Source: Gemmatimonadales bacterium (GTDB lineage Bacteria > Gemmatimonadota > Gemmatimonadetes > Gemmatimonadales > GWC2-71-9). Taken from it: 42,195 nucleotides of DNA. The notes beneath the pieces are model-generated. The model had not been told where the DNA came from. It made no database searches and saw nothing but the letters and a program-made list of their open reading frames with translations. Shown here piece by piece: positions 7,414 to 42,195 of the stretch (positions are counted from its first letter, which is position 1; every line of letters starts with the position of its first letter). Location: contig JAHBVU010000025.1 of assembly GCA_019637315.1 (NCBI GenBank), positions 1-42,195 of the forward strand. Direction: 5' to 3'. The position numbers and the translations under genes are program-made.

Positions 7414-7474
7414 CGGCATCGACTCCAGATCTGAGACGGGCACAGCGAGCTGCGCCCCGAGGATGAACTGGCGG

Positions 7475-15160: not shown

Positions 15161-18100
15161 ATGAGAGATCACGACATCATGGCCGAACGGTTCGTCGACC
15201 CTAACGTATTCGAGACTGCAAACGCCGGCTTCGCGCAGGCGATCTACGAGGAGTACCTCAAGAACCCGGCGGGCGTAGCGCCCGAGTGGCGGGTTCTTTT
15301 CGAAAACGGGCGCGTCGGTGAGCAGCCGCCCGTCGCCGCCGTCAATGGAGCCAAGCCCGCATCCGACGCTCCTGCTGCGCAGTCGACGGCCCCGAACAAC
15401 GCCCAAATCATCAAAGGCCCGGCGGCCCGCCTCGTCGCCAACATGAACGAGAGCCTCACGGTTCCGACGGCGACGACGTTCCGGGAAATTTCGGTGCGTG
15501 CCCTGGAGCAGAACCGGACGGCCCTGAATAACGAGCTCAAGGCGGCCGGCCGCGATATCAAGATCTCCTTCACGCATCTGATCGGGTATGCCCTGGTGCG
15601 GGCGGCAGCGACGCATCCGGTGATGACCCATACCTTCGCTTCGGTCGATGGCGCGCCGCATCGGATCGATCCGGCCGGGGTCAACCTGGGCATCGCGGTC
15701 GATGCGCAGCGAAAGGACGGCAGCCGCGGACTGGTGGTGCCGGTCATCAAACATGCCGAGCAGGCCGACTTTGCCGGCTTCCACTCGGCCTACGAAGCGC
15801 TGGTCGAAAAGGCACGCACCAGCAAGCTGATGCCGGACGACTTCGCCGGCGCGACGATGTCGCTCACCAACCCCGGCGGTATCGGGACGGTGGCCTCGGT
15901 GCCGCGACTGATGGCGGGCCAGGGCAGCATCATTGCGGTCGGCGCCATCGGGTACCCGCCCGAGTACAGCAACCTCTCGGCCGAGGCAATCAAGGCGCTG
16001 GGCGTGTCGAAGGTGATGATGATCACCAGCACCTACGACCATCGCATCATCCAGGGCGCCGAGTCCGGCGAGTTCCTGCGCACGATGGAGCAGCTGCTGC
16101 AGGGCAACGACGGCTTCTACCAGGCCGTGGCCGCATCGCTCGGTGTGCAGCTCGGCGCGGTCCCGGTCGTCGAATCCGCAACCTCGGCACCACCTTCACC
16201 GGTGGCTCGCACCGGGCGGCCGAGCGCTGCTTATGGTGCTGCCGCGACCCTGGACGACCTGGAAGCAGTGTCCGCCGCCATGAGCCTGCTAAAGGGCTTC
16301 CGGACTCACGGTCATCTGGCGGCTCGGCTCGACCCACTGAGCGGCACTCCCATCGGCGATTCGGCGATGGATCCGACCTCGCTCGGACTCGATGAAGCGC
16401 GGATGGCACGGATCCCGTCGAGCATACTTCGCACCGCCGTACCTGGCGCGACGCTGGCGGAGGCGCTGCCGAATCTGCACGCGACCTACTGCGGTACCCT
16501 TGCCTATGAGGTGGAGCACCTGGCGAGCCACGACCAGCGGGTCTGGCTCCGGCAGCAGATCGAATCGGGCTCCCACCGGACCCCACTCGACCGGGACGCC
16601 AAGCTGGCCCTGCTCGATCGCCTGATTCAGGTCGAGACTTTCGAGCGCTTCCTGCACAAAGCCTACCTTGGCCAGAAGCGGTTCTCGATCGAGGGTGTCG
16701 ACCTGCTGGTCCCGATGCTCGACACCGTCATCGAGATGGCGGCCGAGCAGGGGGCGCGGGACGTTGGGCTCGGCATGGCCCATCGCGGCCGCCTCAACGT
16801 GCTGGTGCACACGCTGGGTCGTCCCTATGTCACGGTCTTCGCGCAGTTCGAAGGCCAGAAGCCCGGCAAGGAAGGCGAGGACATCGGGACTGGCGACGTC
16901 AAGTACCATCATGGTGCCGAGGGCGCGTTCGTCACCAAAACGGGACGGTCGATTGCCGTCTCGCTGGCTCACAATCCGAGCCACCTCGAGTTCGTCGGTC
17001 CGGTGGTCGACGGCCAGGCCCGCGCCAAGCAGACGCAGCGAAAGAGCGGTGCCGGCTATCATGACCCGACGGCCGCATTGCCGGTCGTGATTCATGGCGA
17101 CGCCGCCTTTGCCGGACAAGGCGTGGTGCAGGAGACGCTCAATCTCGGCGTGCTGCGCGGCTATGCGACGGGTGGTACCATTCACATCATCGCGAACAAC
17201 CAGGTCGGCTTTACCACCGACGCGCTCGATTCGCGGTCGACCCAGCACGCCAGCGATCTGGCCAAGGGCTTCGACATTCCGATCATCCACGTCAACGCCG
17301 ACGATGCGGAGGCCTGCCTGGCTGCCGTGCGTCTCGCCATGATGTATCGGGAACGCTTCCGCGAGGATGTCGTGATCGACCTGGTCGGCTATCGCCGGCA
17401 TGGGCACAACGAGGGTGACGAGCCAGGTTACACCCAGCCGACCATGTACGAGCGGATCAAGAATCATCCGACCGCTCGGGCCCGGTATGCCTCACAGCTG
17501 GTGAGCGACGGCACCATCTCCGCCGACGACGCCGAGCGGCGTTACGAGGCCTCATACCAGCACCTGGTCGACCTGCAGCAGGGATTCAAAGCCTCGCAGG
17601 CCCAGCCCGCGCCGACCGAGCCGGCGCCCGCCAAGATCACCCGTGAGGAACCGGTGACTGCGGTGGCTGCGGATACGTTGATTGCGCTCAACGACCAGCT
17701 GCTCAGCTATCCTGAAGGTTTCACGGTGCACCCGAAGCTGGTCCGGCAGCTCGAGCGTCGTCGCACCACTATGGGCGCCGATGGCGGCATCGACTGGGGC
17801 CACGCTGAGGCGCTGGCCTTCGCGTCGCTGGTTAGTGAGGGAGTGCCGATTCGGCTGACCGGTCAGGATACCGAGCGCGGCACCTTCAGCCATCGCCATC
17901 TCGTGTTGCACGATGCCGTCAACGGCGCCAGGACCTGTCCGATGCAGCGGTTGCCGGGCGCGATGGCCTCCTTCGAGGTCCATAACAGCCCCCTTTCGGA
18001 GCTGGCGACGCTGGGCTTCGAGTACGGCTACAGCATCGCGGCCCGCGAGTCGCTGGTGGTGTGGGAAGCCCAATTTGGCGACTTCATCAACGGCGCCCAG

Positions 18101-18817
18101 GTCATTGTCGATCAGTTCATGGCGGCAGGCCTGTCGAAGTGGGGTGTCACCTCGCGGCTGACGCTGTTGTTGCCGCACGGATACGAAGGCCAGGGCCCCG
18201 AGCACTCGAGCGCCCGGATGGAGCGCTTCCTCCAGCTGGCGGCCGAGGGCAATATCCGGCTCCGCAACTGCACCACGTCGGCGCAGTACTTCCACGCACT
18301 GCGCCAGCAGGCCCGCCGCAATCGGCAGCGGCCGATGGTGATCTTTACGCCCAAGAGCCTGCTGCGTCTGCCTCAGGCGTCGTCGACGTTGCGTGACCTC
18401 GCGGAGGGCAGGTTCCACCCGGTCCTCAACGATCCAACCGCACAGCAGCAGGCCGAGGCGGTCTCGCGTGTGGTGCTGTGCTCTGGCAAGGTCTACTACG
18501 ATCTGCTGACGGCGGCGGAGAAGGCGGGGGGCGCGCGTCCGGCGCTGGTTCGGCTGGAACAGCTCTACACCTTCCCGGAACCGGAGATCAGCGAGGTACT
18601 GGCCTCCTATCCCAGCGCGACCGAACTGGTCTGGTGCCAGGAAGAGCCGCGCAACATGGGGGCCTGGACCTTCGTCGAGCCCCGGCTGCGCAGGCTACTG
18701 CCCGAACGGATGACGCTTCGATATGTTGGTCGGCCGGATCGGGCCAGCCCGGCCGAGGGCTATACCTACGCTCATACGATCGAGCAGGAACGGATCGTCG
18801 GAGAAGCCCTGAGCTGA
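15161..18817 (+). CDS. kgd: Kgd-type multifunctional 2-oxoglutarate decarboxylase/dehydrogenase (E2-E1 fusion)
   Basis: A 1218-residue TCA-cycle enzyme combining a succinyltransferase (E2-like) domain and a thiamine diphosphate-dependent E1 domain, as in mycobacterial Kgd/OdhA. An E1-type N-terminal helix (about 16-50) precedes a linker, then the E2 core (about 80-320) with TYDHRIIQGAESG (291-303). There is no lipoyl domain, so the lipoyl carrier must come from another protein. E1 follows (about 365-1218): GMAHRGRLNVL (538-548), SLAHNPSHLEFV (601-612), the thiamine motif GDAAFAGQG (646-654) with NNQVGF (679-684), and RRHGHNEGDEP. In E2 enzymes the motif is DHRxxDG; here the Asp is Gln298, as I recall for Kgd of Actinobacteria. 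The start is ATG 15161 or 15179. A strong terminator follows the gene. Confidence 0.95.
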   Translation: MRDHDIMAERFVDPNVFETANAGFAQAIYEEYLKNPAGVAPEWRVLFENGRVGEQPPVAAVNGAKPASDAPAAQSTAPNNAQIIKGPAARLVANMNESLTVPTATTFREISVRALEQNRTALNNELKAAGRDIKISFTHLIGYALVRAAATHPVMTHTFASVDGAPHRIDPAGVNLGIAVDAQRKDGSRGLVVPVIKHAEQADFAGFHSAYEALVEKARTSKLMPDDFAGATMSLTNPGGIGTVASVPRLMAGQGSIIAVGAIGYPPEYSNLSAEAIKALGVSKVMMITSTYDHRIIQGAESGEFLRTMEQLLQGNDGFYQAVAASLGVQLGAVPVVESATSAPPSPVARTGRPSAAYGAAATLDDLEAVSAAMSLLKGFRTHGHLAARLDPLSGTPIGDSAMDPTSLGLDEARMARIPSSILRTAVPGATLAEALPNLHATYCGTLAYEVEHLASHDQRVWLRQQIESGSHRTPLDRDAKLALLDRLIQVETFERFLHKAYLGQKRFSIEGVDLLVPMLDTVIEMAAEQGARDVGLGMAHRGRLNVLVHTLGRPYVTVFAQFEGQKPGKEGEDIGTGDVKYHHGAEGAFVTKTGRSIAVSLAHNPSHLEFVGPVVDGQARAKQTQRKSGAGYHDPTAALPVVIHGDAAFAGQGVVQETLNLGVLRGYATGGTIHIIANNQVGFTTDALDSRSTQHASDLAKGFDIPIIHVNADDAEACLAAVRLAMMYRERFREDVVIDLVGYRRHGHNEGDEPGYTQPTMYERIKNHPTARARYASQLVSDGTISADDAERRYEASYQHLVDLQQGFKASQAQPAPTEPAPAKITREEPVTAVAADTLIALNDQLLSYPEGFTVHPKLVRQLERRRTTMGADGGIDWGHAEALAFASLVSEGVPIRLTGQDTERGTFSHRHLVLHDAVNGARTCPMQRLPGAMASFEVHNSPLSELATLGFEYGYSIAARESLVVWEAQFGDFINGAQVIVDQFMAAGLSKWGVTSRLTLLLPHGYEGQGPEHSSARMERFLQLAAEGNIRLRNCTTSAQYFHALRQQARRNRQRPMVIFTPKSLLRLPQASSTLRDLAEGRFHPVLNDPTAQQQAEAVSRVVLCSGKVYYDLLTAAEKAGGARPALVRLEQLYTFPEPEISEVLASYPSATELVWCQEEPRNMGAWTFVEPRLRRLLPERMTLRYVGRPDRASPAEGYTYAHTIEQERIVGEALS

Positions 18818-18825
18818 ACTACTCC

Positions 18826-18856
18826 CGCGGGGGGCCACTGGCCCCCCGCGTTTCTT
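18826..18856 (+). terminator. Intrinsic terminator after kgd
   Basis: An 11-base perfect stem, CGCGGGGGGCC (18826-18836) and GGCCCCCCGCG (18840-18850), closes a three-base loop ACT and is followed by TTTCTT. It starts nine bases after the kgd stop codon. The stem is long and all G-C, so this should end kgd transcription and separate it from the amidohydrolase gene. Confidence 0.9.
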
Positions 18857-18899
18857 GCTACCCTGCAGTCCCAGATCGATCGCCCCTTCGGAGGAATCC

Positions 18900-20186
18900 A
18901 TGCGTCTGTTCGCAGTCGCCCTGTCGGTCGTCGTCGTTACCAGCGCAGCAGGCGGCGGTCAGCCGCTCAGCGCCCAGCAACCTGCTACCCCGATCGTGGT
19001 CCGGGCCGCCCGGATGGTCGACGTGGTCAGCGGTCAGCTGCTGCGCAACCCCGTCCTGGTGGTCGAGGGCGACAGGATCACCGCCGTCAACCCGGCCGCG
19101 GCACCCCGGGGCGCGCGCACCATCGACCTGGGCGATGTCACGCTGCTGCCTGGCTTGATCGACCTGCACACCCACCTGTCGATGGAAATCGGCGCGAGTT
19201 CCTTTACGGCGGCAGCCACGACCACTCCGGCCGCGGAGGCGTTCAACACGGTCCAGTATGCCCTCCGAACCATCCATGCCGGTGTTACAACGGTTCGCGA
19301 TTTTGGCGGCGACAACACCGTCGCACTCGGACACGCGATCGAGAAAGGGATCATCACGGGCCCCCATGTGATTCCGTCGCGCAACCCGCTCGGCATTACC
19401 GGCGGGCACTGCGATCTGACCGGCTTCGCGCCCGGGGTGCTCGAGCAGCGCATCGAGGACGGTGTTGCCGACGGCCCGTGGGATGTGGTCCGGGCGGTTC
19501 GCTATCAGATCAAGCACGGCGCCCAGGTCATCAAGACCTGCGCGACCGCCGGCGTGTTGTCGCTCGAAGGACCGGTTGGCGCGCAACAGTATACCTACGA
19601 AGAACTCAAGGCCATGGTGGACGAGGCCGCCCGGCACGGGGTGCGGGTAGCGGCCCATGCGCATGGCAACGCCGGTATCAAAGCGGCCGTCCGCGCGGGC
19701 GTCACCTCGATCGAGCATGGTTCCGAGCTCGATGATGAGGCCATCGCCCTGATGAAGCAGCACGGCACCTATCTCGTCCCCACGACCTATCTCGTTGGTC
19801 GAATCAACCTGGCGGTGCTGCCGGCGCAGGTCCGGCGGAAGGCGGAGGCGATTCTGCCGATCGCGCAGGCCAGCCTTCGGAAGGCGATCGCTTCCGGAGT
19901 AAAGATCGGGTTTGGCACGGACGCGGGGGTCTATCCGCACGGGGAGAACGCCAGGGAGCTGGCGCTCTATGTCAAATACGGGCTTTCATCGATCGATGCC
20001 CTGCGCAGCGCGACGGTCCACGCGGCCGACGCGCTCGGCAAGACTGATCGGGGCGTAATCGAGGCGGGGCGCCTGGCCGACCTGATTGCGGTGCCGGGTA
20101 ACCCGCTCGAGGACATTACGGCCACCGAGCGGGTCAGCTGGGTGATGCATGCCGGGAAGGTGATCAAGGGCAGCGGCGCAAGCTAA
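18900..20186 (+). CDS. Exported metal-dependent amidohydrolase, imidazolonepropionase-like
   Basis: A 428-residue hydrolase of the amidohydrolase superfamily. The N-terminus is a signal peptide (hydrophobic residues 3-16, likely cleavage near LSAQ at 23-26), so it acts outside the cytoplasm. Metal ligands are visible: His90 and His92 (DLHTH), Lys212 (VIKTCATAG, probably carboxylated), His253 (AAHAHG), His273 (IEHGSE) and Asp341 (FGTDAG). This set matches the binuclear peptidase-like branch (prolidase or Xaa-Arg dipeptidase type) rather than true HutI. The ATG at 18900 has GGAGG seven bases upstream. It lies 50 bases after the kgd terminator. The stop codon overlaps the convergent transporter gene by four bases. 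The substrate is probably a small peptide or N-acyl amino acid, which is inference. Confidence 0.88.
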   Translation: MRLFAVALSVVVVTSAAGGGQPLSAQQPATPIVVRAARMVDVVSGQLLRNPVLVVEGDRITAVNPAAAPRGARTIDLGDVTLLPGLIDLHTHLSMEIGASSFTAAATTTPAAEAFNTVQYALRTIHAGVTTVRDFGGDNTVALGHAIEKGIITGPHVIPSRNPLGITGGHCDLTGFAPGVLEQRIEDGVADGPWDVVRAVRYQIKHGAQVIKTCATAGVLSLEGPVGAQQYTYEELKAMVDEAARHGVRVAAHAHGNAGIKAAVRAGVTSIEHGSELDDEAIALMKQHGTYLVPTTYLVGRINLAVLPAQVRRKAEAILPIAQASLRKAIASGVKIGFGTDAGVYPHGENARELALYVKYGLSSIDALRSATVHAADALGKTDRGVIEAGRLADLIAVPGNPLEDITATERVSWVMHAGKVIKGSGAS

Positions 20187-21061
20187 GCAGCTCGGACGGG
20201 AGCCGCTTCCTCGCGGCTGCCGCGCTCCTCCCGCCCGAAGAACGCCGGCAAGACGGCCAAGACGATCAACCCCATCCCGATAAGCCCCAAGCGACTCGGT
20301 GCCATGTCGCGGAGCCCCCAGCGGAACAGCACCTCGTACACGACCTGGAGATAGAGCACGGGCGCCAGCGCCGCCCAGCGGTCCGTATCGACCGCCCGGT
20401 CGAGCAGGTAGAGGCCGAACAGTCCGATGCTCCCGATCGCGACCAGCGAACCGACGCCGGCGAGACTCGGCGTCCTCCATACGGCCGGCATCAGCAAGCT
20501 GAGCGCGAGGAAGACCCAGAGCGCCGTGTGCACCAGTTTGGGCAGGATGGCCTCGTCGCGCATCTGCGCCGTCATGTGAATGTACAGCGCAAAGCACAAC
20601 GCCATGCCGATCGGGAGCAGCGCGGGAAGGGTCAGTGCGTCCGAGTCGGGACGCAGCACGAGCCAGACGCCCAGAAGCCCCGTTCCCGCCGCGACCAGCG
20701 TCCGTACACCGCCGAAGGAGGCGCGGCTGAGCGCAGCGAGCGCGATGATCATGAGCGGCGCGATCCAGAAGACGCCCAGCATGTTGCCGGGGCGCAGCAT
20801 CCGCACGCCGAAGATGAAGCAGAGGGGCATGCCGAGCATCAGGAGCGAGCGCAGGATCTGCCAGCCGGGCCGAGGGGTGCGTACCAGCGCCGTGACACCG
20901 CGGCGCGGTGCGAACAGCAGCAACAGCACGGCCAGATGGACGGCGTACCGGCTCCAGACGATCTGGTAGAGCGAGACGCCGCTTGCCGGCACGACGGTCT
21001 CCGCGATCGACCAGAAGAACGAGAACCCAGCCAGCAGCAGCGCCGAGCGGTTCAGCCTCAT
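20183..21061 (-). CDS. EamA/DMT-family membrane transporter, last gene of the PKS operon
   Basis: A 292-residue very hydrophobic protein with about ten transmembrane helices, arranged as two five-helix halves in the manner of drug/metabolite transporters (EamA, RhaT, YdcZ relatives). Visible helices include those around SALLLAGFSFFWSIAE, LAVLLLLFAP, LLMLGMPLCFIFGV and LGLIGMGLIVLAVLPAFF. It ends in a charged cytoplasmic tail. Its ATG overlaps the stop of PKS-C as ATGA, the same four-base coupling that joins the PKS genes, so it is made with the synthase and may export the product, an intermediate or a side product, or import a precursor. That role is inference from position only. Its stop codon overlaps the end of the convergent amidohydrolase gene by four bases. 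Confidence 0.85.
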   Translation of the reverse strand: MRLNRSALLLAGFSFFWSIAETVVPASGVSLYQIVWSRYAVHLAVLLLLFAPRRGVTALVRTPRPGWQILRSLLMLGMPLCFIFGVRMLRPGNMLGVFWIAPLMIIALAALSRASFGGVRTLVAAGTGLLGVWLVLRPDSDALTLPALLPIGMALCFALYIHMTAQMRDEAILPKLVHTALWVFLALSLLMPAVWRTPSLAGVGSLVAIGSIGLFGLYLLDRAVDTDRWAALAPVLYLQVVYEVLFRWGLRDMAPSRLGLIGMGLIVLAVLPAFFGREERGSREEAAPVRAA

Positions 21062-24000
21062 GGGCTGCTCGCGCCGCCGCGCTCGGCCAGCAACTTGCTC
21101 AGCTGAGCGTCGAGGTCTTCTTCCGACAGCGTATCGATGCTCTCGAGTAGTGCCGCGTTCTCCGCACCCGCACCGTCCGCTGTGAGCGCGAGCTGCGCCT
21201 CGATGGTGGAGGCGAGTTCATTGGTGCTCGGCCCGAGCAGCAGATCAGCCACCGCAACCGTCACCTGGAAATTGGCTTCGAGTCGGTTGCGGAGTTCCAT
21301 CGCCATCAGCGAGTCGAGCCCCATGTCCATGATGGAGCGGTCGGGGTCGACCCGATATGACGAACTCAGCGCCAGCACGCGAATCAGCTGGCCCTGAAGG
21401 AACTCGACGATCAGCCCACGCCGGTCATCGGGCGCCGCGGCGGCGAGAACGGCCCGCATGTCGACCGCCGGCTCCGCAACGGAACCCGTGGTCGTGACCG
21501 TAGCCAGCAGCTCCCGGAAGAACGGACCCGCCGCATCCGTGAGCTTTGACAGCCGAAGCGGCAGCACGGCCACACGAGGCGAGACGGCGCCGGCCATGAC
21601 CTCGCCCAGGGCGCGGACGCCGTCCTCCGGCGTGATCATCTCGAGGCCGAGCGCGGCCCAGCGGCGGCGGTGCTGTTGGCTGACGCTGGCGGCCATGCCC
21701 ACCTCGGACCAGCTGCCCCAGTTGATGCTGAGCGCGGGAAGCCCCTTGGCCTGGCGATGGTGGGCCAGCATGTCGAGGAACAGATTGGCGGCGGCGTAGT
21801 TGCCCTGCCCCGGTGAGCCCAGCAAAGCGGCCCCCGAGGAGAACATCACGAAGAAGTCGAGCGGGACGCGCTCGGTGAGCTGGTGCAGATGCCAGCTGCC
21901 CGCCACCTTGGGCGCCATCACGCGCCGGAAACTCTCGACGTCCTGGTCCGGCAGCATCCGGTCCTCGACGATACCCGCGGCGTGAATGATGCCGCGAAGC
22001 GGGGCGTGGTCGCGGCGTGCGGCCTCGAGGATGCGGACCACGTCGTCCCGTTCCGCCACGTCACCCTGAGTTACGGTGACGCGCGCACCGGCTGCCTCGA
22101 GCTCCGCCACGGCCGCACGAGCCGCATCGGTCGGGGGCCGGCGAGCCGTGAGAATCAGGTCGCGCGCGCCCTGCGCCACCAGCCACCCGGCCACCGCGAG
22201 GCCCAAGCCGCCCACACCACCCGTAACCAGGTAGCTGCCGTCGGGCCGCACGGTGGGGCCATGCCGCTGCGTGATGACGACCTTGCCCATGTGCTTGGCT
22301 TGCGCCATGAAGCGGAACGCCTCGACCGATTGCTCCAACGGGAAGAGATGGTTCGGCAGCGGCGTCAGCGCGCCACGCTCGAAATCCGCCAGGAGGTCGA
22401 GGAACATCCGCCGGATCAGAGCCGGATCGGCCGCGGCGATTTCACCCAGGTACAGCAGGTAGTATTCGAGCCCGGTATACTGCGCGTCGACGACTGCCTG
22501 GTTCCACGCGTCCGTCTTGCCGATTTCGATGAAGCGACCGCCCGGACGCAACAGTTCGAGCGTCTTGGGGATGAATTCGCCGGCCAGCGAGTTGAGCGCG
22601 ATGTCGACGCCCTCTCCGTTGGTGGCAGCGCGCACGTCATCCACGAAGGAGAGGGAGCGCGAATCGCTCACGTGATGCGCGCCGAGCTGCTTCGCCACTG
22701 CCCGCTTGGTCGGGTTGCCGGCGGTTCCGAAGATCTCGGCACCCGCCCGCTTGGCGAGCTGAATGGCAGCCATGCCGACGCCGCCGGTGGCCGCGTGGAT
22801 CAACACCCGGTCGCCCGCCTTCATCCGACCCAGGTGGTTGAGGGCATAATCGGCCGTGAGGAAGGTGACCGGGATCGTGGCCGCCTCGGCGAACGTCAGA
22901 TTGGCCGGCTTCCGCACCGTGAGGACGGCCGGCGCGAGCACATAGGTGGCAAAACTCTGATCCACCATGGTGATGACTTCGTCGCCCACGGCCAGATCCT
23001 CGACGCCCGCGCCAACGGCGCTAACCACGCCGGCACACTCGTTGCCCAAGGGACCGGGATCGCCGGGGTACATGCCCAGGGCATTCAAGACGTCACGGAA
23101 ATTGAGGCCGGTGGCATGCACGCGGATCTCCACCTCTCCGGGCCCCGGAGGGGTGCGACGCATCGGCTGGAGCGCGAGATAGTCGAGCTGGCCCCGGGTC
23201 GGGATCTCCAGCCGGATCGGTTGCTCGGCAACGGGACTGACGACCTGTGCTGGCACCAGCCGCGCGACGAAACGATGACCACCGCGATAGGCAACCTGGG
23301 TTTCGTCATCGGGTCGCAGCAGCGCATCGAGCAGCGCGTCGAGATGGGCCGCCGGGTCGGGGGCGAGATCGAGGCGCACCAGCATCATCGACGGATACTC
23401 GGCCGCTACCACCGCGCCCAGCCCCCAGAGCGGCGCCTGGGCGGGGTCAGAGATGGAGCCGTCCACCGGCTGGCCGCCCGCCGTGACGAGCCAGAGCCGC
23501 GCCCCGGTTTCGGCCGAGGCGTTGGCCAGATGGAGCGCGCCGAGGGTAGCTCGATCGGGCTGCCGGGCAACCTCGAACGCGTCCGGCGGGCCGTCGAGCG
23601 CGGCAAGGTAGACGATCCCATGCAACGGACTGTCGCCGGCCGTGCCGAGGGCAGCCATCAGGCGGTCGACCTGGGCCCGATCCGTCAGATCGAGCTGCCA
23701 GGTCTCGCCCTGGTGCGACCATGCGGCGCCGTCGCGGGCGAGATCGACCCGATGACCGTCGGCACGCAGCCGTTCGGCCAGGCGATCTGCTACCCCGCGG
23801 CCCTCGCCGACGATGAGCCAGCGCGCCGCGGCGGTTGCTGCGGACGAGCTCGGCACCTGCCGCCAGGCCACCTCGAAGACGCCGTCGCCCGGCGCCCGCT
23901 TTCGGAAGAGACGTTCGAGCGTCTGGCGCGACACGCGGCGGAGCGTCAAACTGGCGACCCGTGCCACCATGTGCCCCTCCGCATCAACCAGGACGAGATC

Positions 24001-27000
24001 GGCAGCCACGCTGTCACCCGACTGTCCGTCGGAGGTCAGGGTCACGTGACACCAGATGTCGCTCGCGCCCGGACGGAACATCTCGACCGCGCCGATACCC
24101 ACCGGGACGTAGACGTCACGGTCTGAAGCCTCGCCCTCGGCATCGGGCAGCGCCGCGCCGGTCAGCTGGAAGCAAGCATCGAGCAGCGCCGGATGCAGTC
24201 CGTAGCGTCCCGGGGCCGCTGCGCCCGGAAGCACGACTCGGCCCACCACCTCGCCGACGCCGCGATGAATCTCGGTGATACCACGAAACACCGGCCCGTA
24301 CTCCGCACCAACCGCGGCGAGCTTCTCGTAGTAGGTCGGCAAATCGACTGTGTCGCGCGTCCGGCTTCGGATCGCGTCGAGCGGGTACGGTTCACTGGGG
24401 GCGTCCGCCGCCGCGGCCACGGTTCCCGAGGCGTGGAGCTTCCACACCGGCGCCTTGGGATCGTCACCTGTCGAGCTGAAGATCTGGAAGGTGTGGGCCT
24501 GGCCCGTCGGCGCCAGGATGACCTGGACGGTCACCGTCCCGCTATCCGGCACCTCCATGGCCTCCTGGATGGTGACCTGCTCGAGGGTCACGTCGCCGCC
24601 GCGCACTTCCGCTGCGGCGGCGCGTGCCAGCTCGAGATACCCGGTGCCCGGAAACAGCGTCAGACCAGCGATGCGATGGTCCGCCAGAAATGGAAATTCC
24701 GCGAGCCCGATGGACGTCTCGAAGATGTCGAGCGGGCTCAGCACCTTGCCGCCGAGCAGGGGGTGGCCGCTTGCAGTGGGCGCGAGCGCCTGCCGGTGTG
24801 ACGACTCGAGCTCCAGCCAGTACCGCTCGCGCTGGAACGGATAGGTGGGCAGCACCACGCGGCGGCGCGCCGAGGCGTAGTCGCGCTCGAAGCCCGCCCA
24901 GTCGACCTTGAGGCCGTTGACGTAGAGCTGACCCAGATTCTCCAGCATCGCGCTCCAGTCGGAGCGGCCCTTGCGGAGCGAGGCAAGCCAGGTTGCCCGG
25001 CCTTCAGGCAGGCACCGCCGCGCCATGCCGGTGAGCGTCGGATGGGGCCCGACCTCGAGGAACAGCCGGTAGCCGTCCTGATCCAGCGTCGCAATCGAGT
25101 CGGCAAAGCGGACAGCGGCGCGCAGATGTTCGCGCCAGTACCGCGCGGTCAGGATCTCGGGACCCGCCATGCGGCCCGTCACATTGGACACGAGGCCGAT
25201 CTGCGGGCTGGCAAACCGAACCTTCTGGGCGACGCTCTCGAACTCATCGAGGATCGGGTCCATGAGCGGCGAATGGAAGGCATGCGACACGTTGAGCCGC
25301 TGCGTCTCGACGCCAGCCGCCGCAAATTGCTGGACGGCGCGATCGACGAGATCGTTCCGCCCCGAGATGACCACGTTGGTCGGACCGTTCACACCCGCAA
25401 TCGCAATCGGTCCGCCGATCTCGGCCAGCACCCGCGCCACGTCGGCTTCGGCGGCGAACACTGCGGCCATTCCTCCGTTACGCGGCAACGCACCCATCAG
25501 GCGGCCCCGTACCGCGATCAACTGCAGCGCATCCTCGAGGCTGAACACGCCCGCCACACACGCGGCGACGTATTCGCCCACGCTGTGGCCCAGCACCACC
25601 GCGGGTTCGGCACCCCAGGAGCGCCACAGCTCGGCCAGCGCATACTCGATCACGAACAGGGCCGGCTGCGTATAAGTGGTCTGATCGACTAGCGGCTCGG
25701 CACCCTGGTCGGCAAAGAGCACGCTCAGGAGTGGCCGGTCGAGATGCTGATCCACGATGGCGGCGCAGCGATCGACCGTCCGACGGAAGGTTGGCTGCGT
25801 CTCGTAGAGTTCCCGGGCCATGCCGGGATACTGTGCCCCCTGCCCCGTAAACATGAACACGATGTCGGGCGATACGTTGCCGCCCGCCCGACCGCGCGCA
25901 ACGCCCGCGACGATCTCGCCGGCCGCTGCTGCGCGCAGCCGATCGCGGGCTTCCTCCGCGGAGCTCGCCGTGACGGCCAGGCGCTCGCTGAAGTGCGACC
26001 GACCGCTCGCTGCAGTAGCCGCCACGTCCGCAAGAAGCGCCGCATCCGTGCGGTCGAAGTATGCCGCGAAGTCCCGGGCCAGCGTCGTCAACGCATCCGG
26101 CGTCTGGGCCGACAGTACGAGCAGCTGGGTCGATCGGTCGACCGGGCACGCCGTCGGTTCGACCGGCGGCGCTTCCTCCAGAATCACGTGCGCGTTCGTG
26201 CCGCTGAACCCGAAGGAGCTGATGCCGACCCGGCGGCGCTGATCCGGCGCCACGGTCCAGTCGGTCAGCACCGTCGGCACCGCGATGGGATACTTGTCCC
26301 AGGGAATCAGCGGATTCGGCGTGTGGAAATGCAGGTGCGGTGGAAGCTGCTTGTGCTGCAGTGCCACGATTGCCTTGGCGAGCCCAGCCACGCCGGCGGC
26401 ACCCTCCAGATGGCCGACATTGGTCTTGATCGACCCGACCATGAGCGGTCGATCCGCAGGACGACCCCGTCCATAAACCTCACCGAGCGCCTTGATCTCG
26501 ATCGGGTCGCCGAGCGAGGTGCCGGTGCCGTGAGCTTCGACGTATCCGACGTCGGTCGGAGTAAGCCGCGCATTGGCGAGCGCCGCCTCGATTACCGCTT
26601 CCTGCGCCGGGCCGTACGGCGCGGTCAGGCCGCTGCTCCGTCCGTCCTGGTTGATGGCGGACCCGCGGATCACGGCCATGACTCGATCACCGTCGCGCCG
26701 TGCATCCGACAGCCGCTTGAGCACCAGCACGGCACACCCCTCGCCGCGGACATAACCGTCGGCCGCTGCGTCGAAGGTGTGGCATCGACCGGTCGGCGAG
26801 GTCATCCGTCCACGGGACGTGAGAATGGAGCCATTCGGCGTCAGGGTCAGATTCACCCCGGCCGCGAGCGCCAGGTCCGCTTCCCGATTCCGCAAGCTGA
26901 GCATTGCCAGATGGGTCGCCACCAGCGACGACGAGCATGCCGTGTCGAGCGCCACGTTGGGCCCGTGCAGCCCCAGCACATAGGAAATCCGCCCGGCAGC

Positions 27001-27557
27001 CATGCTGTCGGCTGTCCCCGATGACGCGTACGCATCGGAGCGGCTCGGACCCTGGGCCTCGAGAATCCGATTCGAATAATCCTGCGTCGACACACCCAGG
27101 TAGACGGCCGTCTGGCTGCCCGCCAGGCGCGCCGGCCCGATTCCCGCATGCTCCAGCGATTCCCAGACGACTTCGAGCAGGAGGCGCTGCTGCGGATCCA
27201 TGCTGACCGCTTCACGCGGTGAAATGCCGAAGAAATGAGCGTCGAACCGATCGACGTTATCGAGGAAGGCGCCCCATCGGCTGTAGGTCTTGCCCAGGGC
27301 ATCCGGGTCCGGATCGAAATAAGCGTCGACGTCCCAGCGGTCCGCCGGTACCTCGGTCACCGCGTCGACCCCGGAGGCCAGCAGCTGCCAGAGAGACTCC
27401 GGATCCTTGACGCCACCCGGCATCCGACAACCCAGCCCGATGACCGCGATCGGCTCCGACTGCGCCTGCTCCAACTCGGCGACCCGGGCCTTGAGTTCGT
27501 CGATCGCCACCAGGGAGCGCTTGAGCAGCGCGCGATAGTCCTGCGGCGGCTTGGCCG

Positions 27558-27561
<4 letters not shown>
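21058..27561 (-). CDS. Type I polyketide synthase PKS-C (KS-AT-DH-ER-KR-ACP)
   Basis: A 2167-residue single-module synthase, last PKS in transcription order. An N-terminal docking coiled coil (about 8-35) precedes KS (36-460; Cys209, His344, His384). AT (about 567-880) has Ser660 in GHSVGE and HAFH (760-763), predicting malonyl-CoA. DH (about 932-1215) has His962 in [10 protein letters not shown] and Asp1128/Gln1132. A structural KR half (about 1240-1435) is followed by ER (about 1460-1765; [11 protein letters not shown]) and KR (1775-1955; TGGVGGLG, Lys1885, Ser1909, Tyr1922, all intact; B-type VED). ACP has Ser2084 in GLDSLMA. No C-methyltransferase domain is present. All reductive domains look active, so it should add an unbranched, fully saturated two-carbon unit. 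It ends in a docking-like helix (2143-2161, [14 protein letters not shown]) and has no thioesterase. Confidence 0.95.
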
Positions 27562-34276
<6,715 letters not shown>

Positions 34277-34280
<4 letters not shown>

Positions 34281-37200
34281 GACCCCTGCATCTTGCGGGC
34301 AAACAGCGCCTCCACCTCGGCATCGGAAAGATCCTCGATCGCACCCACGGCATCGGTGCCTTCCTGGGCAGGCTCGGCGGGCGCGGTAGTTCCCGTCGCC
34401 CCAACAGCCTCCGCGAGGACCCCGGTCTCCAGGAATGCCGCCAGCGCATCCAGCGTCGGATGGTCGAAGACCAGCGTCGCCGGCAGACTCCGAGTCAGGC
34501 CAAGTGCGGTACCCAGCCGGTTCCTGAGCTCGACCGCCATCAGCGAATCGAGCCCCAGTTCGTTGAGAGGCTGCCGCTGATCGATGGCCCGACCATCCTG
34601 CACCCCCAATACGCGCGCCACCTGGTCGCCCACGAAGTCGACCAGGAGTTCACGCCGCCGGCCCGGGACGGCCTCGGCCCATCGCTGGATGAATCCGGTC
34701 CCCGCGGTTCCCTGGTCGGCCGGGCGAATGGATGATTTTGCGACCGACACGGTACGATGCAGGTCTTGGACCACCTCGGAGACCCAGCCAGGCCGCTGCC
34801 CGGCCTCGAACCGCCGAGCAAACAGATTCCAATCGATCGGCAGCACGCCGAGGTGCGGGGGCGCCCCCTCCATGGCAGCTTCGAGCAGGGCGAGACCATC
34901 GGCCGGGGGAATCACCCCAACCCCCTGGGCTTCGATCCGGCGGTCAACCCCGTGTTCCACCGCCGCGCCGACTTCCGACCACGCCCCCCAGCTGATGCTG
35001 AGCGCCGGCAGACCGCAGGCCCGACGGTAGTAAGCGAGCCCGTCCATGAAGGCGTTGGCCGCCGCGTGGTTGCCCTGACCGGCCGAGCCCAGCAGGGACG
35101 CCACCGACGAATACAGCACGAAGAAATCGAGCGGCCGATGGCAGGTCCCCCGGTGCAATGCCCAGGCGCCGGCCACCTTCGGACCAAGCGGGATCCGGAA
35201 TCGGTCCCAACTCTGCTGCAGCAAGGCGCCGTCCTCGAGGACCCCGGCCGAGTGCACGATCCCGCGCAGCGGCGGCAGCGTCGTATCGATCTCGGCGAGC
35301 AGCTCGGCAATCGCTTCGGGTCGAGACACGTCAACCCGCCGTACCGCGACTTGCGCACCCGCCTGCTCCATTCCGGCGATGGTCTGTTGCGCAGCCTCCG
35401 ATGGCCCGCGCCGGCCCACCAGCACGAGGTGACGCGCACCCCGCTCGACCAGTCGCTCCGCCGTCAGGAGCCCGAGCCCCGTGAGGCCGCCCGTCACGAG
35501 GTAGCTGGCATGACACGAGAGCGACCCGAGCCCCGCTCGATCCGGCGCCGTCACCGTCAGCACCACCTTGCCGACATGCCTGGCTTGCGCCATGTATCGG
35601 AAGCCTTCGGCAGCGCGTTCCAGGGGGAAGGTCCATCGCGGCAACGGGGTGATCTCGCCGCGCGCCAGCGTAGCCATGATGTCGGCAAATGCCGCGGAGG
35701 ATCCGACTGGATCGTCCAGGTGCCGCCGGGCGAGGTCGATCGCATGGTAGCGGCCATCCGGCCGGACGCGGCGGAAATCGTCGTCGGTCCAGATCTCCCG
35801 CTTGCCGATTTCGAGGAACCGGCCGCGTGGCGACAACACACTCGCCGTGGCCGGGATGAACTCGCCGGCAAGCGAGTTGAGTGCCACGTCGACGCCCCGT
35901 CCATGCGTGACCGCACGGATCTCCTCGGCGAACCGAAGGCTGCGCGAGTCGAAGACGTGCGCGATGCCAAGAGAACGGAGATAGCTGCGCTTTTCCTCGC
36001 TGCCGGCCGTTGCGAAGATCTCGGCACCGATCCGCTGCGCAATCTGGATTGCCGCCATCCCGACGCCGCCGGCGCCCGCGTGGATCAGTACCCGCTCCCC
36101 GCGCTGGAGCCCGGCCAAGGTGACCAGCGCGTAATGTGCGGTCATGAATGCAAAGGGCACCGTAGCTGCCGCCTCGTGCCCGATCGTTGGCGGCAGCAGC
36201 ACGACGAACCGTGCGTCTACCGTGACGTAGGTCCCGAAGCACCCCTGGCCCGTCGCGACGACATCATCGCCGGGAGCCAGGTGCTCAACGCCCGGTCCCA
36301 CCGCCACGACGCGGCCCGCGCATTCGCCGCCCAGCGGCTCCGGATCGGCCCGCATGGCGACCGCGTTCATCACGTCGCGGAAGTTGAGCCCCGCGGCGTA
36401 GACCCGAATCTCCACCTCGCCCGGGCCGGGCACTCGGCGGGCCGTCGGTACGAGTCGGATCTCATCGAGGATACCGGTCGCCGACGGTGCGAGGCGGACC
36501 GGATCCGGCGCTGTGCTGCGCACCGAGACCGGGACGATTCGTGCCCAATGCCGGCGCCCGCCCCGCACCGCGATCTGATCCTCCGTTTCAGGCGCGCCGA
36601 GCGCTCGGAACAGGTCGCGCGCCTGATCGACCATGCTCGCGCGCGGATCGAGGTCGACGCGTGTAGCCCCAAGCTCGGGATGCTCCAGCGCCACGACGCG
36701 TCCCAAACCCCAGACCGGTGCTTGTGCCACCGCAACGGGCTCCGCGCCCTCCACCGGTACGGCGCCCCGCGTCACGAGCCAGAGGCGCGGCACGGCCCCG
36801 TGCTCGAAGGAATGGGTACCAAGGGACTGCACGACGGCTACGATACTGCCCAGGGTTGCCTGCTGCGCCTCAAGCACCGACTCCGTCGCGTCGATCGCGG
36901 AATCGTCGTGCGCCAGCGCGCCCAGGTGGATCACGCCGCGCAAGGTCGCGGACCGCGCCGCGACGAGCCGGCCGAACCCATCGTGGTCGCCTTCCCGAAC
37001 CTCGACCGTGCGGTGCCCGGCTGCAGTCAGATGCCGGGCCAGTCCAGCAGTGACATCACCTCCGTCGCCGACGAGGAGCCAGTCTCCTGGGTCGCCCAGG
37101 ATGGGCAGCGCATCGACCGGCTTCCGTCCGATGACGAGCGCTTCACGGGAGAGCGGCGATTCGGGCGGCGCGATGACCGCTTCATAGCCCAGGTCCTCGA

Positions 37201-40200
37201 AGAGCCGCTGCCAGGCAGCCCGATCGAGCAGCGGATAGTCGGGCCGAATCGCCCGATCGGTGAAACGCCACCAGCCTTCGGTCAGGCCGAAGGTGACATC
37301 GATCCACCGTTCCGGCGCCGCCACCTCGAGCATCAGGAGCGTGCCGCCCGGTGCCAGCGCACGATGGATCCGGCCCAGTGTGGCCCGGAGGTCGGCGGTG
37401 GCGTGGATCACATTGACGGCGATGATCAGATCGAAGCCTTCGGCGCCGACGCCCTGGGCGGCGAGCTCACGCTCGAGATCCAGCGTCTGACACTGCACGA
37501 ATCGATGCGCAGCGAACTTCTCCCGCGCTCGGGCTACGAGTGTGGGGCTCAGGTCGGTAAACAGGTACTCGGTCCGGTCCGCCGGCAGCTCCGGCACCAC
37601 CCACGACGTCGTAGCGCCCGTGCCGCCCCCAACTTCGAGCACGCGCAGCCGACGATCCAGCGGCAACCCGGAAACGAGCTCCGCCACGGACGCGCGCACC
37701 AGCCCGTTGTAGACCAACGCCTCCGGCGCATGCTGATAGAGCGACTCCGCCAGCTCCGCGGAGCCGCCGGGAAAGAGGTATTGGAGCGGATCGGCCCTGC
37801 CCCGCAATACCTCGGCGAGCACGCTGCCACAGGACGCGGTCAGCGTAATCTGCGCCGCCGACGCCGGCCGACGCGCCAGGAGCGACTGGGTCGATGCCGC
37901 AGCGTCTACCACCGGCGGCAGCGCCCTCACGGCCCAGCGATCGCCGTTGCGCCCAAGGATTCCGTCTTCGGCAAGGATCACGAGATACCGGATCAGGAGA
38001 CCCCGATACCTCGGCACGATCCCGAGCCGATCGAGCAATCCATCAGTGGTGACCTCCTCCCCGACTGCGAAGGTCCAGCCGAGTTCCGCGAAGGATCGGA
38101 GGATGAAGGCAGTCGCGAGCGCTTCGACCTCGAGGTAGGTCTCGTGATAGGTCGGCAGGCCGTGTTGCTCGGCAAGTATCGGCAGCTCGGTTGCGGTGCG
38201 TCGCTCCAGCGCGGCTGGTGCCGGAAATCCCTCAGCGGCCGAGGCCGGCTCAGCCCGCCAGGCAAGCTCGTAGGTCCAGCCATCGCGTCCGCTCACGACG
38301 GAGGGCGCGGGCCGCAGGGTGACTCCCCCAAGCTCCGCGACCACCCCGTCCGCATCCGCGATGACGATGTCCGCGGTAAGCGAACCGCTCGCCGCCTGGG
38401 GCAGGAGCACCGTGGCCACGCTGGTGACTCGATTGCCCGGCGTCCGATGGATCGCCACCCGATCGACGGCCAGCGGCAGGTACGCACCGCGCGCGGCGAT
38501 GCTCTCGGGGATTGCGGCGGCCAGCCCCTGAAGGCAGGCATCCAGCAACGCCGGATGAATCCGGTAACCCGCGGCGCTGCCGGCCGCCTCCGGCAGCACA
38601 ATGTCCGCGACGGCCTCGCCATCGCAACGCCAAACCGCTTCCACACCGCGTAAGCTCGGCCCGAAATCGAGGCCGCGCGCCGCCAACGCCCCGTAATGGT
38701 CGACGGCGGTCAGTGGTTCGAGGCAACGCGCGCGCACGGCCGCCAGATCTGTCGCGCCGGACGATTCCGGACGCGCCGAGGCGAGCCGCGCCGTTGCATG
38801 GAGCCGCCAGGCGGTGCCGTCTCCTGATTCGGCGGTGCTGGAAACCTCGACCTCCGCACCGCCACCCTCCGAATGCCGGAGCACCGTCTGCACCAGGCGC
38901 CGCTCGTCGGGCGCAAAAGCGAGCGGCTCGCGGATCACGAGGTCTTCGATTGCCCGCATCTCGCCGAAGACGGCAGCCGATCCAGCTGCCAGCATCTCGA
39001 TAAACCCCGTGGCGGGCAGGATCGGACGCCCGTCGACCCGATGGTCTGCCAGGAAGGGGACCCCGCCCGCGGCAATCGTCGACTCGAACTGGACCACATC
39101 GCGCAGCGCCGACCGGATCCGGGCTCCCAGCAGCGGATGCTCCGCCGAACCGGCCCGCCGGCCGGCGGGTGCGGGCCGAGTCCAATACGATGACCGCTGG
39201 AAGGGATAGGTCGGCAAGCTGACACGACGGCGCGGAGCGCCGGCATCGAGACCGTACAAGTCGGTTTCGACCCCGTGCGTCCAGAGCTCACCAAGCGTTG
39301 CGAGCAGCGTCGTCCAATCGTCTTTCCCGCGGCGCAATGTGGGCAGCCAGACGCGCCCATCCCCTGGCGCCGAGTCCCGAGCCATGCTGATCAGCGTCGG
39401 ATGCGGCCCGACCTCGATGAACACCTCGTGGCCCTGCGCGGCAAGCGACGCCATCGCGGCCGAGAAGCGGACCGGCTCGCGGAGATGGCGCCGCCAGTAG
39501 CGCGCCGTCGTCACCTCAGCCGGGTCGGCCGGCCCACCCGAAAGATTGGAGAGCAGTCGCCCGCTCGGCGCAGTGTACTGCACCGTCGCCGCGATCGCCT
39601 CGAATTCGTCGAGGATCGGATCCATCAGCGCCGAATGAAAGGCATGTGATACGACGAGAGGACGGGTCGTGATGCCCCGTGCGCCGAGCGCAGTGCAGAC
39701 GGCGTCGACCTCCACACCGGCCCCCGAGATCACGGTGTTGGCGGGGCCGTTGTAGGCCGCGATCGCGAGTCGCGTCCCGGCAATCGCCTCCTCCACCACC
39801 GCCCGGTCGGCCAGAACAGCGGCCATGGCACCTCCCGCCGGAAGGCCCCCCATCAGCCGGCCACGGGCCGCGATCAGCCGGAGCCCGTCCTCCAGGCCGA
39901 AGACGCCAGCTCGGCAGGCGGCAGCATACTCGCCCACGCTGTGTCCCAAGACCGTCGTCGCGTGGATCCCGAGACTCGCCAGCAACTCGGCCAGCGCATA
40001 CTCGATCGCAAACAGACCGGGCTGCGTATAGGTCGTATCATGGATTCGCGCCTCGGCCGCCGCGTCGTCGGGAAACAACACGGAGAGCAGCGGATGCGGG
40101 AGAATCGGCCGGAGCAGTTCGTCGCAACGGTCGATCGCGGCGCGGAAGACCGGTTGCGTCCGGTAGAGCGACCGACCCATCGCCGGATACTGGGCACCTT

Positions 40201-41893
40201 GCCCCGAGAACAGGAATGCGATCCTGGGCTGGTCGTGGAAGGTCGCGCGCCGCACCATCGCACCGGCAGCCTCCCGGCCTTGCGCGACTTCATGCAGTGC
40301 CGCTCGCGCCTCCGCCGTCGACTCGGCAACGAGCGCGCACCGATACGGCAGCGCGGCGCGGCCCGTGTTTGCCGTGAAGGCGATATCGGCGAGGGGTGTG
40401 GCATCATCCAGCCCATCGGCGAAGCGTCTTGCCAGCTCATGCAATGGCGATTCGCCAGCTGCAGAGAGCGTGAGCAGGTGCCGCGGCCGATCCGGCTCGG
40501 CGGCCGACCCCGCCGGCAGGTCCGGTGGCGGGCCGACCACGAGGTGCGCATTGGTACCGCTGAAACCGAACGAGCTGACGCCCGCCAGGAGCCCCGTCTC
40601 GAGCGGCCACGGCGTCAGTGTCGTCGGCACCCGTACCGGTAGCTGGGCCCATGGAATGAACGGGCTCGGCGTCACGAAATGCAGGTGTGGCGGGATGGCG
40701 CGATGCTGAATGCACAGAACCGCCTTGATCAGGCCTGCGACCCCCGCCGATGCCTCCATGTGGCCAACGTTCGTCTTGAGCGACCCGATCCAGAGCGGAC
40801 GATCGGCGGGGCGACCCTCGCCCAGCGCCGTGCCCAACGCCTGGACCTCGATCGGATCGCCCAGCGAGGTGCCAGTGCCGTGCGTTTCGACATAACTGAC
40901 CTCGGCGGGCCGGACGCCGCCGTTGGCCAGCGCATCCCGGATCACCATCACCTGCGCTGGACCGTTCGGCGCCGTGAGGCCGCTGCTCGGACCATCCTGA
41001 TTGACGGCGGAGCCGCGGATCACCGCCAGTACGGTGTCGCCCGCGGCCACCGCGTCCGCGAGGCGCTTGAGCACCACGACGCCGACGCCCTCGCCTCGCA
41101 CGAACCCATCGGCCGCCGCATCGAATGCTTTGCAACGGCCGTCGGGCGCCAACATCCGATACTTCGCCAGGGCAATCATCGTCTCCGGCGCCAGGATCGC
41201 ATTGGTGCCCCCGGCCAGCGCCATCGAACACTCGCCGGACCGCAAGCTCTGTACGGCCAGATGCACGGCTACCAGCGACGAGGAGCAGGCCGTGTCGATG
41301 GACACGCTCGGCCCCTGCAGGCCGAGCACATACGAGATCCGCCCCGACGCGACGCTGTGTCCGACCCCCGAGCCGTAGTAGGTATCGCTGCCGATGGCCC
41401 CGTTCTCGAGTTGCAGCTGCGCATAGTCGGTGCCGGCGATGCCGACGAACACGCCGGTCCGGGTGCCCGAGAGCCGGTCAGGAGCCTGCCCGGCATGCTC
41501 CAGTGCCTCCCAGACGACTTCGAGCAGGAGCCGTTGCTGTGGATCCATACTCGCCGCCTCACGGGGCGAGATGCCAAAGAACGCCGGGTCGAACCGGTCG
41601 ATGTCCCGCAGAAAGGCGCCGTACCGTGTGTTCATCTTGCCCGGCGCCTCGACATCCGGGTCATAGTACGCATCGACGTCCCAGCGATCAGGCGGGATTT
41701 CCGTGACTGCGTTGTCCCCGCGCGCGAGCAGGTTCCAGAACACGGCCGGACTGTCGACTCCACCGGGGAATCGGCACCCCATGCCGACGATCGCGATGGG
41801 CTGCCGGTTGGCGCGCTCGGCCTGCTCCGCGCGTGCCGTCAGCTTCTCGATCGCCAGCAGGGCCTGCTTGGCAGAGGAGAGGGGGGAGGTCAT
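34277..41893 (-). CDS. Type I polyketide synthase PKS-A (KS-AT-DH-cMT-ER-KR-ACP)
   Basis: A 2538-residue single-module synthase with the full set of modifying domains, in the order known from highly reducing synthases. Short docking helix (about 5-28); KS (30-455; Cys203, His338 in VETHGTGT, His378); AT (about 557-870; Ser652, HAFH 750-753, so malonyl-CoA); DH (about 918-1205; His951 in [10 protein letters not shown], Asp1118/Gln1122); C-methyltransferase (about 1225-1590; [11 protein letters not shown] 1419-1429, NVIHATADL); structural KR half (about 1603-1785); ER (about 1805-2115; [11 protein letters not shown]); KR (2130-2310; TGGLTGLG, B-type LED) with His2276 (codon 35066-35068) at the usual catalytic Tyr; ACP Ser2450. 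If all are active it adds an alpha-methyl, fully saturated unit. The C-terminal helix [14 protein letters not shown] is a class 2-like docking element. Start ATG overlaps the upstream PKS stop by four bases. Confidence 0.95.
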
Positions 41894-42195
41894 GACAGCT
41901 CGCTCAGACGGCTGCGCAACAGGGCGTCGGCATCTTCTTCCGTCATTTCGGCCAGCGTCGCTTCAGAAATCGATGACCGGGACGGCGCGGCAGGTGTCGC
42001 GGGCGCATCGCCCGCCTGCGACGTCGATGGATCCAGATGCTCGAGCAGATGCCGGGCGATCGCCTCGATGGTCGGATAATCGAACATCAGGGTGGCCGAG
42101 AGGACCTCACCCAGGCCAAGACCCGTGGCCAGTCGGTTCCGGAGCTGCACGGCCATCAACGAGTCGAGGCCGAGATCCATGAGCCGGTGACGCCG
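41890..42195 (-). CDS. C-terminal end of an upstream type I PKS (ACP and docking tail), truncated
   Basis: The frame is open at the right window edge; the last 101 codons of a larger gene are visible. It contains the phosphopantetheine site [14 protein letters not shown] (the Ser carries the arm) preceded by an open frame that reads RRHRLMD, so the ATG at 42180 is internal, not a start. The ACP continues with [20 protein letters not shown], the ordinary modular type. An Ala/Pro-rich linker leads to a docking-like helix, [14 protein letters not shown]. The stop codon overlaps the ATG of PKS-A as ATGA. This gene should hand its acyl chain to PKS-A through the docking pair, which is inference from order and tail type. 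Confidence 0.9.

What the first reader, a model, noticed from the sequence alone, without database searches (positions are those of the whole stretch)
20183..42195. Five-gene polyketide operon joined throughout by four-base stop/start overlaps, ending in a transporter
Each junction (41890-41893, 34277-34280, 27558-27561, 21058-21061) is ATGA or GTGA. Such uniform coupling over more than 20 kb would fix the ratio of three single-module synthases and of the EamA-type transporter. One module per gene with cis-AT and cMT domains in a probable Gemmatimonadota is little described as far as I know.
Basis: partly seen in the sequence, partly recalled or inferred. Interest (0 to 1): 0.6.

Follow-up and report, generated by a model that had tools for sequence, protein, structure and literature searches.

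The report
Half of a cross-phylum polyketide–peptide cluster
The window holds the second half of a genetic assembly line that probably makes a methyl-branched polyketide joined to an amino acid; the short gene overlaps that drew attention are ordinary, but the same line, with the same order of parts and a transporter beside it, recurs in at least six bacterial phyla and I found no known product for it.

Summary
The block is real but incomplete and somewhat misdescribed. The window is one whole contig. Its minus strand carries three complete one-module cis-AT synthases, KS-AT-DH-cMT-ER-KR-ACP, KS-AT-DH-cMT-KR-ACP and KS-AT-DH-ER-KR-ACP (two of three have cMT), a DMT/EamA transporter, and at the right edge only the ACP tail of a further synthase. 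The four-base overlaps are ordinary: 26.5% of co-directional neighbours in this genome have one. The GTGA junction at 34277 is probably not the true start. The upstream half lies at the end of contig C1: type II thioesterase, module M0, a truncated M1, and, divergently, a C-A-T-TE NRPS, a cyclic-peptide exporter and a phosphopantetheinyl transferase. KS trees, AT motifs and docking peptides place these genes position by position on one conserved line, M0–M5 plus EamA, found in Hydrogenophaga, Heliomarina, Polyangiaceae, Anaerolineae and Acidobacteriota. It is best read as a hybrid PKS–NRPS line whose chain is handed to the NRPS, explaining the absent thioesterase in the window. In passing: the ketoreductase catalytic Tyr is His in both cMT modules, a swap confined to cMT modules among 66 compared. 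No characterised counterpart was found; MIBiG was unavailable.

The parts
41890..42195 (-). C-terminal 101 residues of the upstream synthase (module M2): ACP with DSL serine plus class-2-like docking tail; cut by the contig end
   Evidence: Translation; best matches are ACPs of KS-AT-cMT-ACP (M2) modules in orthologous clusters of other phyla
34277..41893 (-). PKS A (module M3), 2538 aa: KS-AT-DH-cMT-ER-KR-ACP, malonyl-type AT motif HAFHS, KR catalytic Tyr replaced by His
   Evidence: Pfam; motifs; KS and cMT trees
27558..34274 (-). PKS B (module M4), about 2238 aa: KS-AT-DH-cMT-KR-ACP, malonyl-type AT; start more likely the ATG whose first base is 34274 than the GTG whose first base is 34280; KR Tyr replaced by His
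   Evidence: Pfam; N-terminus conserved with M4 orthologues; KS tree UFBoot 96-99; KR
21058..27561 (-). PKS C (module M5), 2167 aa: KS-AT-DH-ER-KR-ACP, no cMT, no thioesterase; C-terminal docking tail
   Evidence: Pfam; motifs; KS tree UFBoot 97-99 with M5 of other clusters
20183..21061 (-). DMT-superfamily (EamA) transporter, 292 aa; beside the PKS genes in most orthologous clusters
   Evidence: model pLDDT 90.1 matching 5i20, LicB and SLC35 structures
21058..21061 (-). ATGA overlap PKS C / EamA
27558..27561 (-). ATGA overlap PKS B / PKS C
34277..34280 (-). GTGA at the PKS A / PKS B junction; probably not the used start
41890..41893 (-). ATGA overlap M2 / PKS A

Best explanation
The block is the downstream half of a hybrid type I cis-AT PKS-NRPS assembly line split by the assembly. 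The upstream half is at the right end of contig C1 of the same genome: type II TE, M0 (KS-AT-DH-ER-KR-ACP) and M1 (KS-AT-cMT-, truncated), with a divergent C-A-T-TE NRPS, TIGR01194 ABC exporter and Sfp-type PPTase. About 4.5-7 kb is missing between the contigs (rest of M1 and most of M2, estimated from relatives). Proposed working: the chain starts on M0 and passes M0>M1>M2>M3 (PKS A)>M4 (PKS B)>M5 (PKS C) through position-specific docking peptides. M2, by its relatives, leaves a beta-ketone with a gem-dimethyl carbon (AT motif YASHS, cMT, no KR). M3 adds an alpha-methyl saturated unit, M4 an alpha-methyl alkene unit, M5 a CH2-CH2 unit. M5 hands the acyl chain to the NRPS, which adds one amino or amino-like acid, and its TE releases the product. 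The DMT protein and the ABC exporter move product or a precursor across the membrane. Shown: gene content, domain order, module orthology, genomic places. Inferred: contig join, chemistry, hand-over to the NRPS, transporter substrate.
For: Domains. Only five PKS-type KS domains exist in the genome: three here and two in a PKS pair at the end of C1, whose second gene runs off the contig. Position by position: PKS1 KS groups with M0 (UFBoot 99), PKS2 with M1 (100), PKS B with M4 (96-99), PKS C with M5 (97-99); AT motifs agree, VDVASHS for M0 and PVxY(A/G)FHS for M1; the edge ACP is M2-type; docking N-termini of PKS B and PKS C closely match M4 and M5. The same series is present in Hydrogenophaga borbori and H. 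intermedia, Heliomarina, Polyangiaceae and Anaerolineae, with NRPS modules in the same neighbourhood in four of the five. TEII followed by M0 and M1 recurs in another genus of the family, G014. Exporter passes TIGR01194.
Against: The contig join is not seen in sequence; the missing M2 and end of M1 are not in the assembly. The position of PKS A rests on weak KS support (47) plus a cMT tree (0.98). M0 and M1 here differ in reductive and methyl domains from M0 and M1 in most relatives although KS and AT group with them. The Anaerolineae line has an extra module and its early KS domains do not follow the same positions. The NRPS is divergently transcribed and nothing here shows that M5 docks to it.
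Confidence: 0.82

Rival explanations
1. C25 and the C1 end are two separate clusters: C25 encodes a stand-alone polyketide line whose loading and release parts are lost in the assembly.
For: No sequence bridges the contigs; M1 remainder and M2 are missing.
Against: The two halves are complementary without overlap in module type (M0, M1 versus M2 tail to M5), and in relatives they form one continuous run behind a TEII.
Confidence: 0.12
2. The synthases act iteratively like mycocerosic acid synthase or fungal highly reducing PKSs and make methyl-branched fatty acids rather than working as a relay.
For: PKS A and C have Mas- or HR-PKS-like domain sets; Mas is the top solved homologue; PKS C scores 1355 bits to NCBIfam's Pks2 model, below its cut-off of 2400.
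Against: Docking peptides at both ends of each protein, specific to position and conserved across phyla, and co-conserved module order.
Confidence: 0.06
3. The four-base overlaps are a selected translational-coupling device that fixes subunit stoichiometry.
For: ATGA/GTGA at all four junctions, and GTGA also between the two PKS genes at the C1 end.
Against: 26.5% of co-directional neighbours in the genome have the same overlap; orthologous junctions vary freely; the 34277 start is doubtful.
Confidence: 0.08

Closest known systems
Orthologous uncharacterised clusters in Hydrogenophaga borbori LA-38 and H. intermedia S1
   Same: TEII, M0 to M5 in order, EamA beside M4 or M5; M3, M4 and M5 architectures as in the window, and (H. 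borbori) KS grouping with PKS B and PKS C
   Different: Two EamA genes; M0 is KR-only-type and M1 DH-ER-KR-type; followed by more NRPS and PKS modules (C-A-T, KS-AT-KR, C-A-T); overlaps not uniform; product unknown to me
Gemmatimonadota NRPS/PKS BGC2 of PMC8692599 (six PKS and two NRPS modules)
   Same: Same phylum and a similar module count
   Different: Module architecture not given in the text read, sequence not compared; those authors suggest a siderophore because of a TonB receptor gene
Epothilone-type modules with a methylmalonyl AT plus cMT that give gem-dimethyl carbons (from memory)
   Same: M2 in relatives pairs a YASH-type AT with a cMT
   Different: No other shared architecture; M2 here is seen only as its ACP
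Mycocerosic acid synthase / Pks2
   Same: PKS C has the same KS-AT-DH-ER-KR-ACP set; Mas is the best solved homologue of PKS A
   Different: Mas is iterative (established knowledge) and lacks cMT; here there are docking peptides and a relay of different modules
CurL of curacin (cyanobacterial single-module PKS with class 2 docking domains)
   Same: KS-AT region and N-terminal helix including the docking region (4mz0)
   Different: Different cluster and module complement
YddG, LicB and SLC35 (DMT superfamily)
   Same: Fold of the EamA protein, TM 0.75-0.78 to 5i20 and 7paf
   Different: Substrate unknown; only 13-20% identity

Membership tests
Modular cis-AT type I PKS | KS, AT and ACP in each module with intact catalytic motifs | tested here: met
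   Pfam; KS Cys and AT GHSxG in all three, ACP DSL in all three
Modular cis-AT type I PKS | One module passes the chain to the next through docking elements | tested here: inconclusive
   Docking-like termini present and conserved by position; interaction itself not testable
Hybrid PKS-NRPS cluster | NRPS module and PKS modules in one locus | tested here: inconclusive
   C-A-T-TE NRPS beside M0 and M1 on C1; join to C25 inferred from orthology, not from sequence
Hybrid PKS-NRPS cluster | Terminal release domain | tested here: met
   TE domain in the NRPS (Pfam 83 bits), on the C1 half; motif GGCMG has Cys instead of Ser at the nucleophile, so activity is uncertain
cMT-containing PKS module | cMT domain with SAM-binding motif between DH and KR/ER | tested here: met
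   [13 protein letters not shown] and [13 protein letters not shown]; absent in PKS C
DMT/EamA transporter | Pfam EamA above cut-off | tested here: not met
   21.1 bits against 28.2; 9 of 10 aligned family members match EamA
DMT/EamA transporter | DMT membrane fold | tested here: met
   Predicted helical membrane protein, pLDDT 90.1; E 3e-7 to 5i20
Iterative Mas/Pks2-type synthase | Above family cut-off | tested here: not met
   Pks2 model 1355 bits against 2400
Known characterised cluster (MIBiG) | Same order and a described product | not testable with these tools
   MIBiG not held; literature searches found none

The most novel reading that the evidence does not exclude
A so far uncharacterised gene cluster family, conserved module by module across at least six phyla, makes a gem-dimethyl-ketone, methyl-branched polyketide-amino acid product with a dedicated DMT transporter; and within such lines the ketoreductase catalytic Tyr switches to His together with the presence of a C-methyltransferase in the module.
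Probability: 0.45. Interest if true: 0.6.

Novelty: new member of a known kind. Interest (0 to 1): 0.42.

Why it matters
A polyketide–peptide line whose module order and docking peptides are kept in Pseudomonadota, Chloroflexota, Myxococcota, Acidobacteriota and Gemmatimonadota (with a related, shorter-sampled locus in Verrucomicrobiota) suggests a useful and mobile product, and culturable carriers (Hydrogenophaga, Heliomarina) make it accessible. The Tyr/His swap in ketoreductases of methylating modules, if it holds in a wider set, is a directly testable question about how such modules time methylation and reduction.

Tried and rejected
Joining PKS2 of C1 directly to the ACP tail on C25 as one KS-AT-cMT-ACP protein: rejected because PKS2's KS and AT are M1-type while the tail is M2-type. 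Missing ketoreductase of PKS2 elsewhere in the genome: none found. Exact overlap of the contig ends: none. Close plasmid relatives: none by DNA; protein hits all under 60% identity, scattered over cyanobacteria, Streptomyces and others. EamA homologue in G014: its contig shows no neighbouring PKS, so not counted as cluster evidence. Searches for a named product or a described EamA–PKS cluster: nothing relevant. A-domain specificity: the core motif (AHDP) resembles aminoadipate reductase Lys2 (from memory; TIGR03443 478.9 bits, below its cut-off), so no amino acid is assigned.

Full report
WHAT THE WINDOW IS. The window is the whole of contig C25 (42,195 bases) of a 36-contig genome, 95% complete. 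The phylum is supported by an M28 peptidase (5851-7485) 56.5% identical to Gemmatirosa kalamazoonensis and at most 27% to the next listed hits. On the minus strand, in transcription order from the right edge: a 101-residue ACP tail; PKS A (34277-41893), KS-AT-DH-cMT-ER-KR-ACP; PKS B (27558 to about 34274), KS-AT-DH-cMT-KR-ACP; PKS C (21058-27561), KS-AT-DH-ER-KR-ACP; and a 292-residue membrane protein (20183-21061). So two of three synthases have cMT, not all, and the 'fifth gene' is a fragment. To the left lie unrelated genes: a convergent amidohydrolase, a 2-oxoglutarate decarboxylase/dehydrogenase, FadJ/FadI, regulators.

[15 protein letters not shown] or GTGA stands at all four places. With a simple gene caller of mine, 87 of 328 co-directional neighbour pairs in 424 kb of the same genome (26.5%) overlap by exactly four bases, 42% of those at most 20 bases apart. 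At 34277 an ATG six bases after the GTG fits the conserved N-terminus of orthologues (own [24 protein letters not shown]. borbori [24 protein letters not shown]. intermedia [23 protein letters not shown]), so that junction is probably a 2-base gap. In clusters with the same gene order the junctions are sometimes -4, sometimes positive. The overlaps are ordinary operon packing, and nothing here supports a ratio-fixing role.

THE OTHER HALF. The genome has only five PKS-type KS domains; the two outside the window are a pair at the right end of contig C1. There I find (C1 coordinates) PPTase 422861-423619 (-), ABC exporter 423561-425207 (-), NRPS C-A-T-TE 425204-429526 (-), type II TE 430113-430913 (+), PKS1 about 430913-437296 (+) and PKS2 from 437293 to the contig end (+), KS-AT-cMT then cut. 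The exporter passes NCBIfam's cyclic-peptide exporter TIGR01194. PKS1 and PKS2 are also joined by GTGA.

ORTHOLOGY. A scan of 84,980 species genomes with PKS A gave 77 loci. In several the neighbours match in order: KS-AT-DH-ER-KR-ACP, KS-AT-cMT-ACP, KS-AT-DH-cMT-ER-KR-ACP, KS-AT-DH-cMT-KR-ACP, EamA and a further KS-AT-DH module. Extending five records shows TEII followed by M0, M1, M2, M3, M4, M5 with EamA beside M4 or M5 in Hydrogenophaga borbori, H. intermedia and Heliomarina; a Polyangiaceae line M0-M4 plus EamA behind C-A-T, KS-AT-KR, C-A-T-TE; and an Anaerolineae line with one extra module. An Acidobacteria MAG (L060) shows M1-M5, and a Verrucomicrobiota MAG (L069) a related run in which M3 lacks cMT. 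A KS tree with ultrafast bootstrap places own PKS1 with M0 (99), PKS2 with M1 (100), PKS B with M4 (96-99), PKS C with M5 (97-99); PKS A with M3 only weakly (47; its cMT groups with M3 at 0.98). AT motifs agree: VDVASHS in M0 and own PKS1, PVxY(A/G)FHS in M1 and own PKS2. The ACP tail at the window's right edge is M2-type. C1 therefore supplies M0 and part of M1, C25 the end of M2 through M5, and about 4.5-7 kb is missing between them (estimate). Another genus of the family (G014) has TEII, M0, M1 in the same order, and G399 has EamA followed by two modules.

HOW IT LIKELY WORKS. Shown: domain content, order, orthology, intact KS and AT motifs, cMT SAM motifs. Inferred: the chain is relayed through docking peptides; M2 (in relatives AT motif YASHS, cMT, no KR) leaves a gem-dimethyl ketone; M3, M4 and M5 add CH2-CH(CH3), CH=C(CH3) and CH2-CH2 units, giving ...C(=O)-C(CH3)2-CH2-CH(CH3)-CH=C(CH3)-CH2-CH2-CO-; the NRPS adds one unit and releases it. 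This explains why the window has no thioesterase. The NRPS TE has Cys in the nucleophile motif (GGCMG), which leaves hydrolysis or cyclisation open. The transporter belongs to the DMT superfamily by fold, and homologues adjoin the orthologous lines. Export of product is the simplest role; precursor import is not excluded, since the same fold includes importers such as LicB.

INCIDENTAL: KETOREDUCTASE Tyr TO His. PKS A and B carry [14 protein letters not shown] where KRs have the catalytic Tyr; PKS C and PKS1 have Tyr. Among 66 KR modules in the fetched loci, His occurs in 17 of 28 modules with a cMT and in none of 38 without. On a KR tree this needs about four changes. Two neighbouring KRs of Westiellopsis prolifica, 182 of 195 residues identical, differ at this residue in step with cMT presence; an M3 without cMT (L084) has Tyr while the related M3 with cMT (L108) has His. 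The set is small and its members related; I do not know whether this has been described (search was uninformative).

KNOWN OR NEW. As a kind this is a modular cis-AT PKS–NRPS system: known. As a cluster family I found no described counterpart in the papers searched; MIBiG could not be consulted. Gemmatimonadota NRPS/PKS clusters are on record, one with six PKS and two NRPS modules (PMC8692599), possibly the same family; its sequence was not compared.

Noticed in passing
window 34277-41893 and 27558-34274; loci L048-L124: The KR catalytic Tyr is His in both cMT modules of the window. In 66 fetched KR modules His occurs in 17 of 28 with cMT and 0 of 38 without; a 93% identical KR pair in Westiellopsis (L051/L081) switches Tyr/His with cMT presence.
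   Followed up: partly
window 20183-20186: The EamA gene (-) and the amidohydrolase gene 18855-20186 (+) overlap tail to tail by four bases.
   Followed up: no
contig C1:425204-429526 (L032:10205-14527, minus): The NRPS adenylation domain has a Lys2-like core motif (AHDP) in place of the usual Asp-led motif, and its TE has Cys in the nucleophile motif (GGCMG); substrate probably atypical.
   Followed up: partly
contig C1:430913-437296 (PKS1): The DH of PKS1 has HVVRRSVLWP in place of HxxxGxxxxP (Gly to Arg); M0 carries DH-ER-KR here and in G014, but KR without ER in H. borbori, Heliomarina and Polyangiaceae, although KS and AT group together.
   Followed up: no
L137-L144 (Hydrogenophaga borbori and H. 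intermedia): Position of EamA differs between closely related clusters (between M4 and M5, or after M5) and it is doubled in Hydrogenophaga, suggesting the transporter moves within the cluster.
   Followed up: no
window 15161-18817: Fused 2-oxoglutarate decarboxylase/dehydrogenase E1-E2 protein (NF008907 equivalog, 1520 bits), a form I know mainly from Actinomycetota, in a Gemmatimonadota genome.
   Followed up: no
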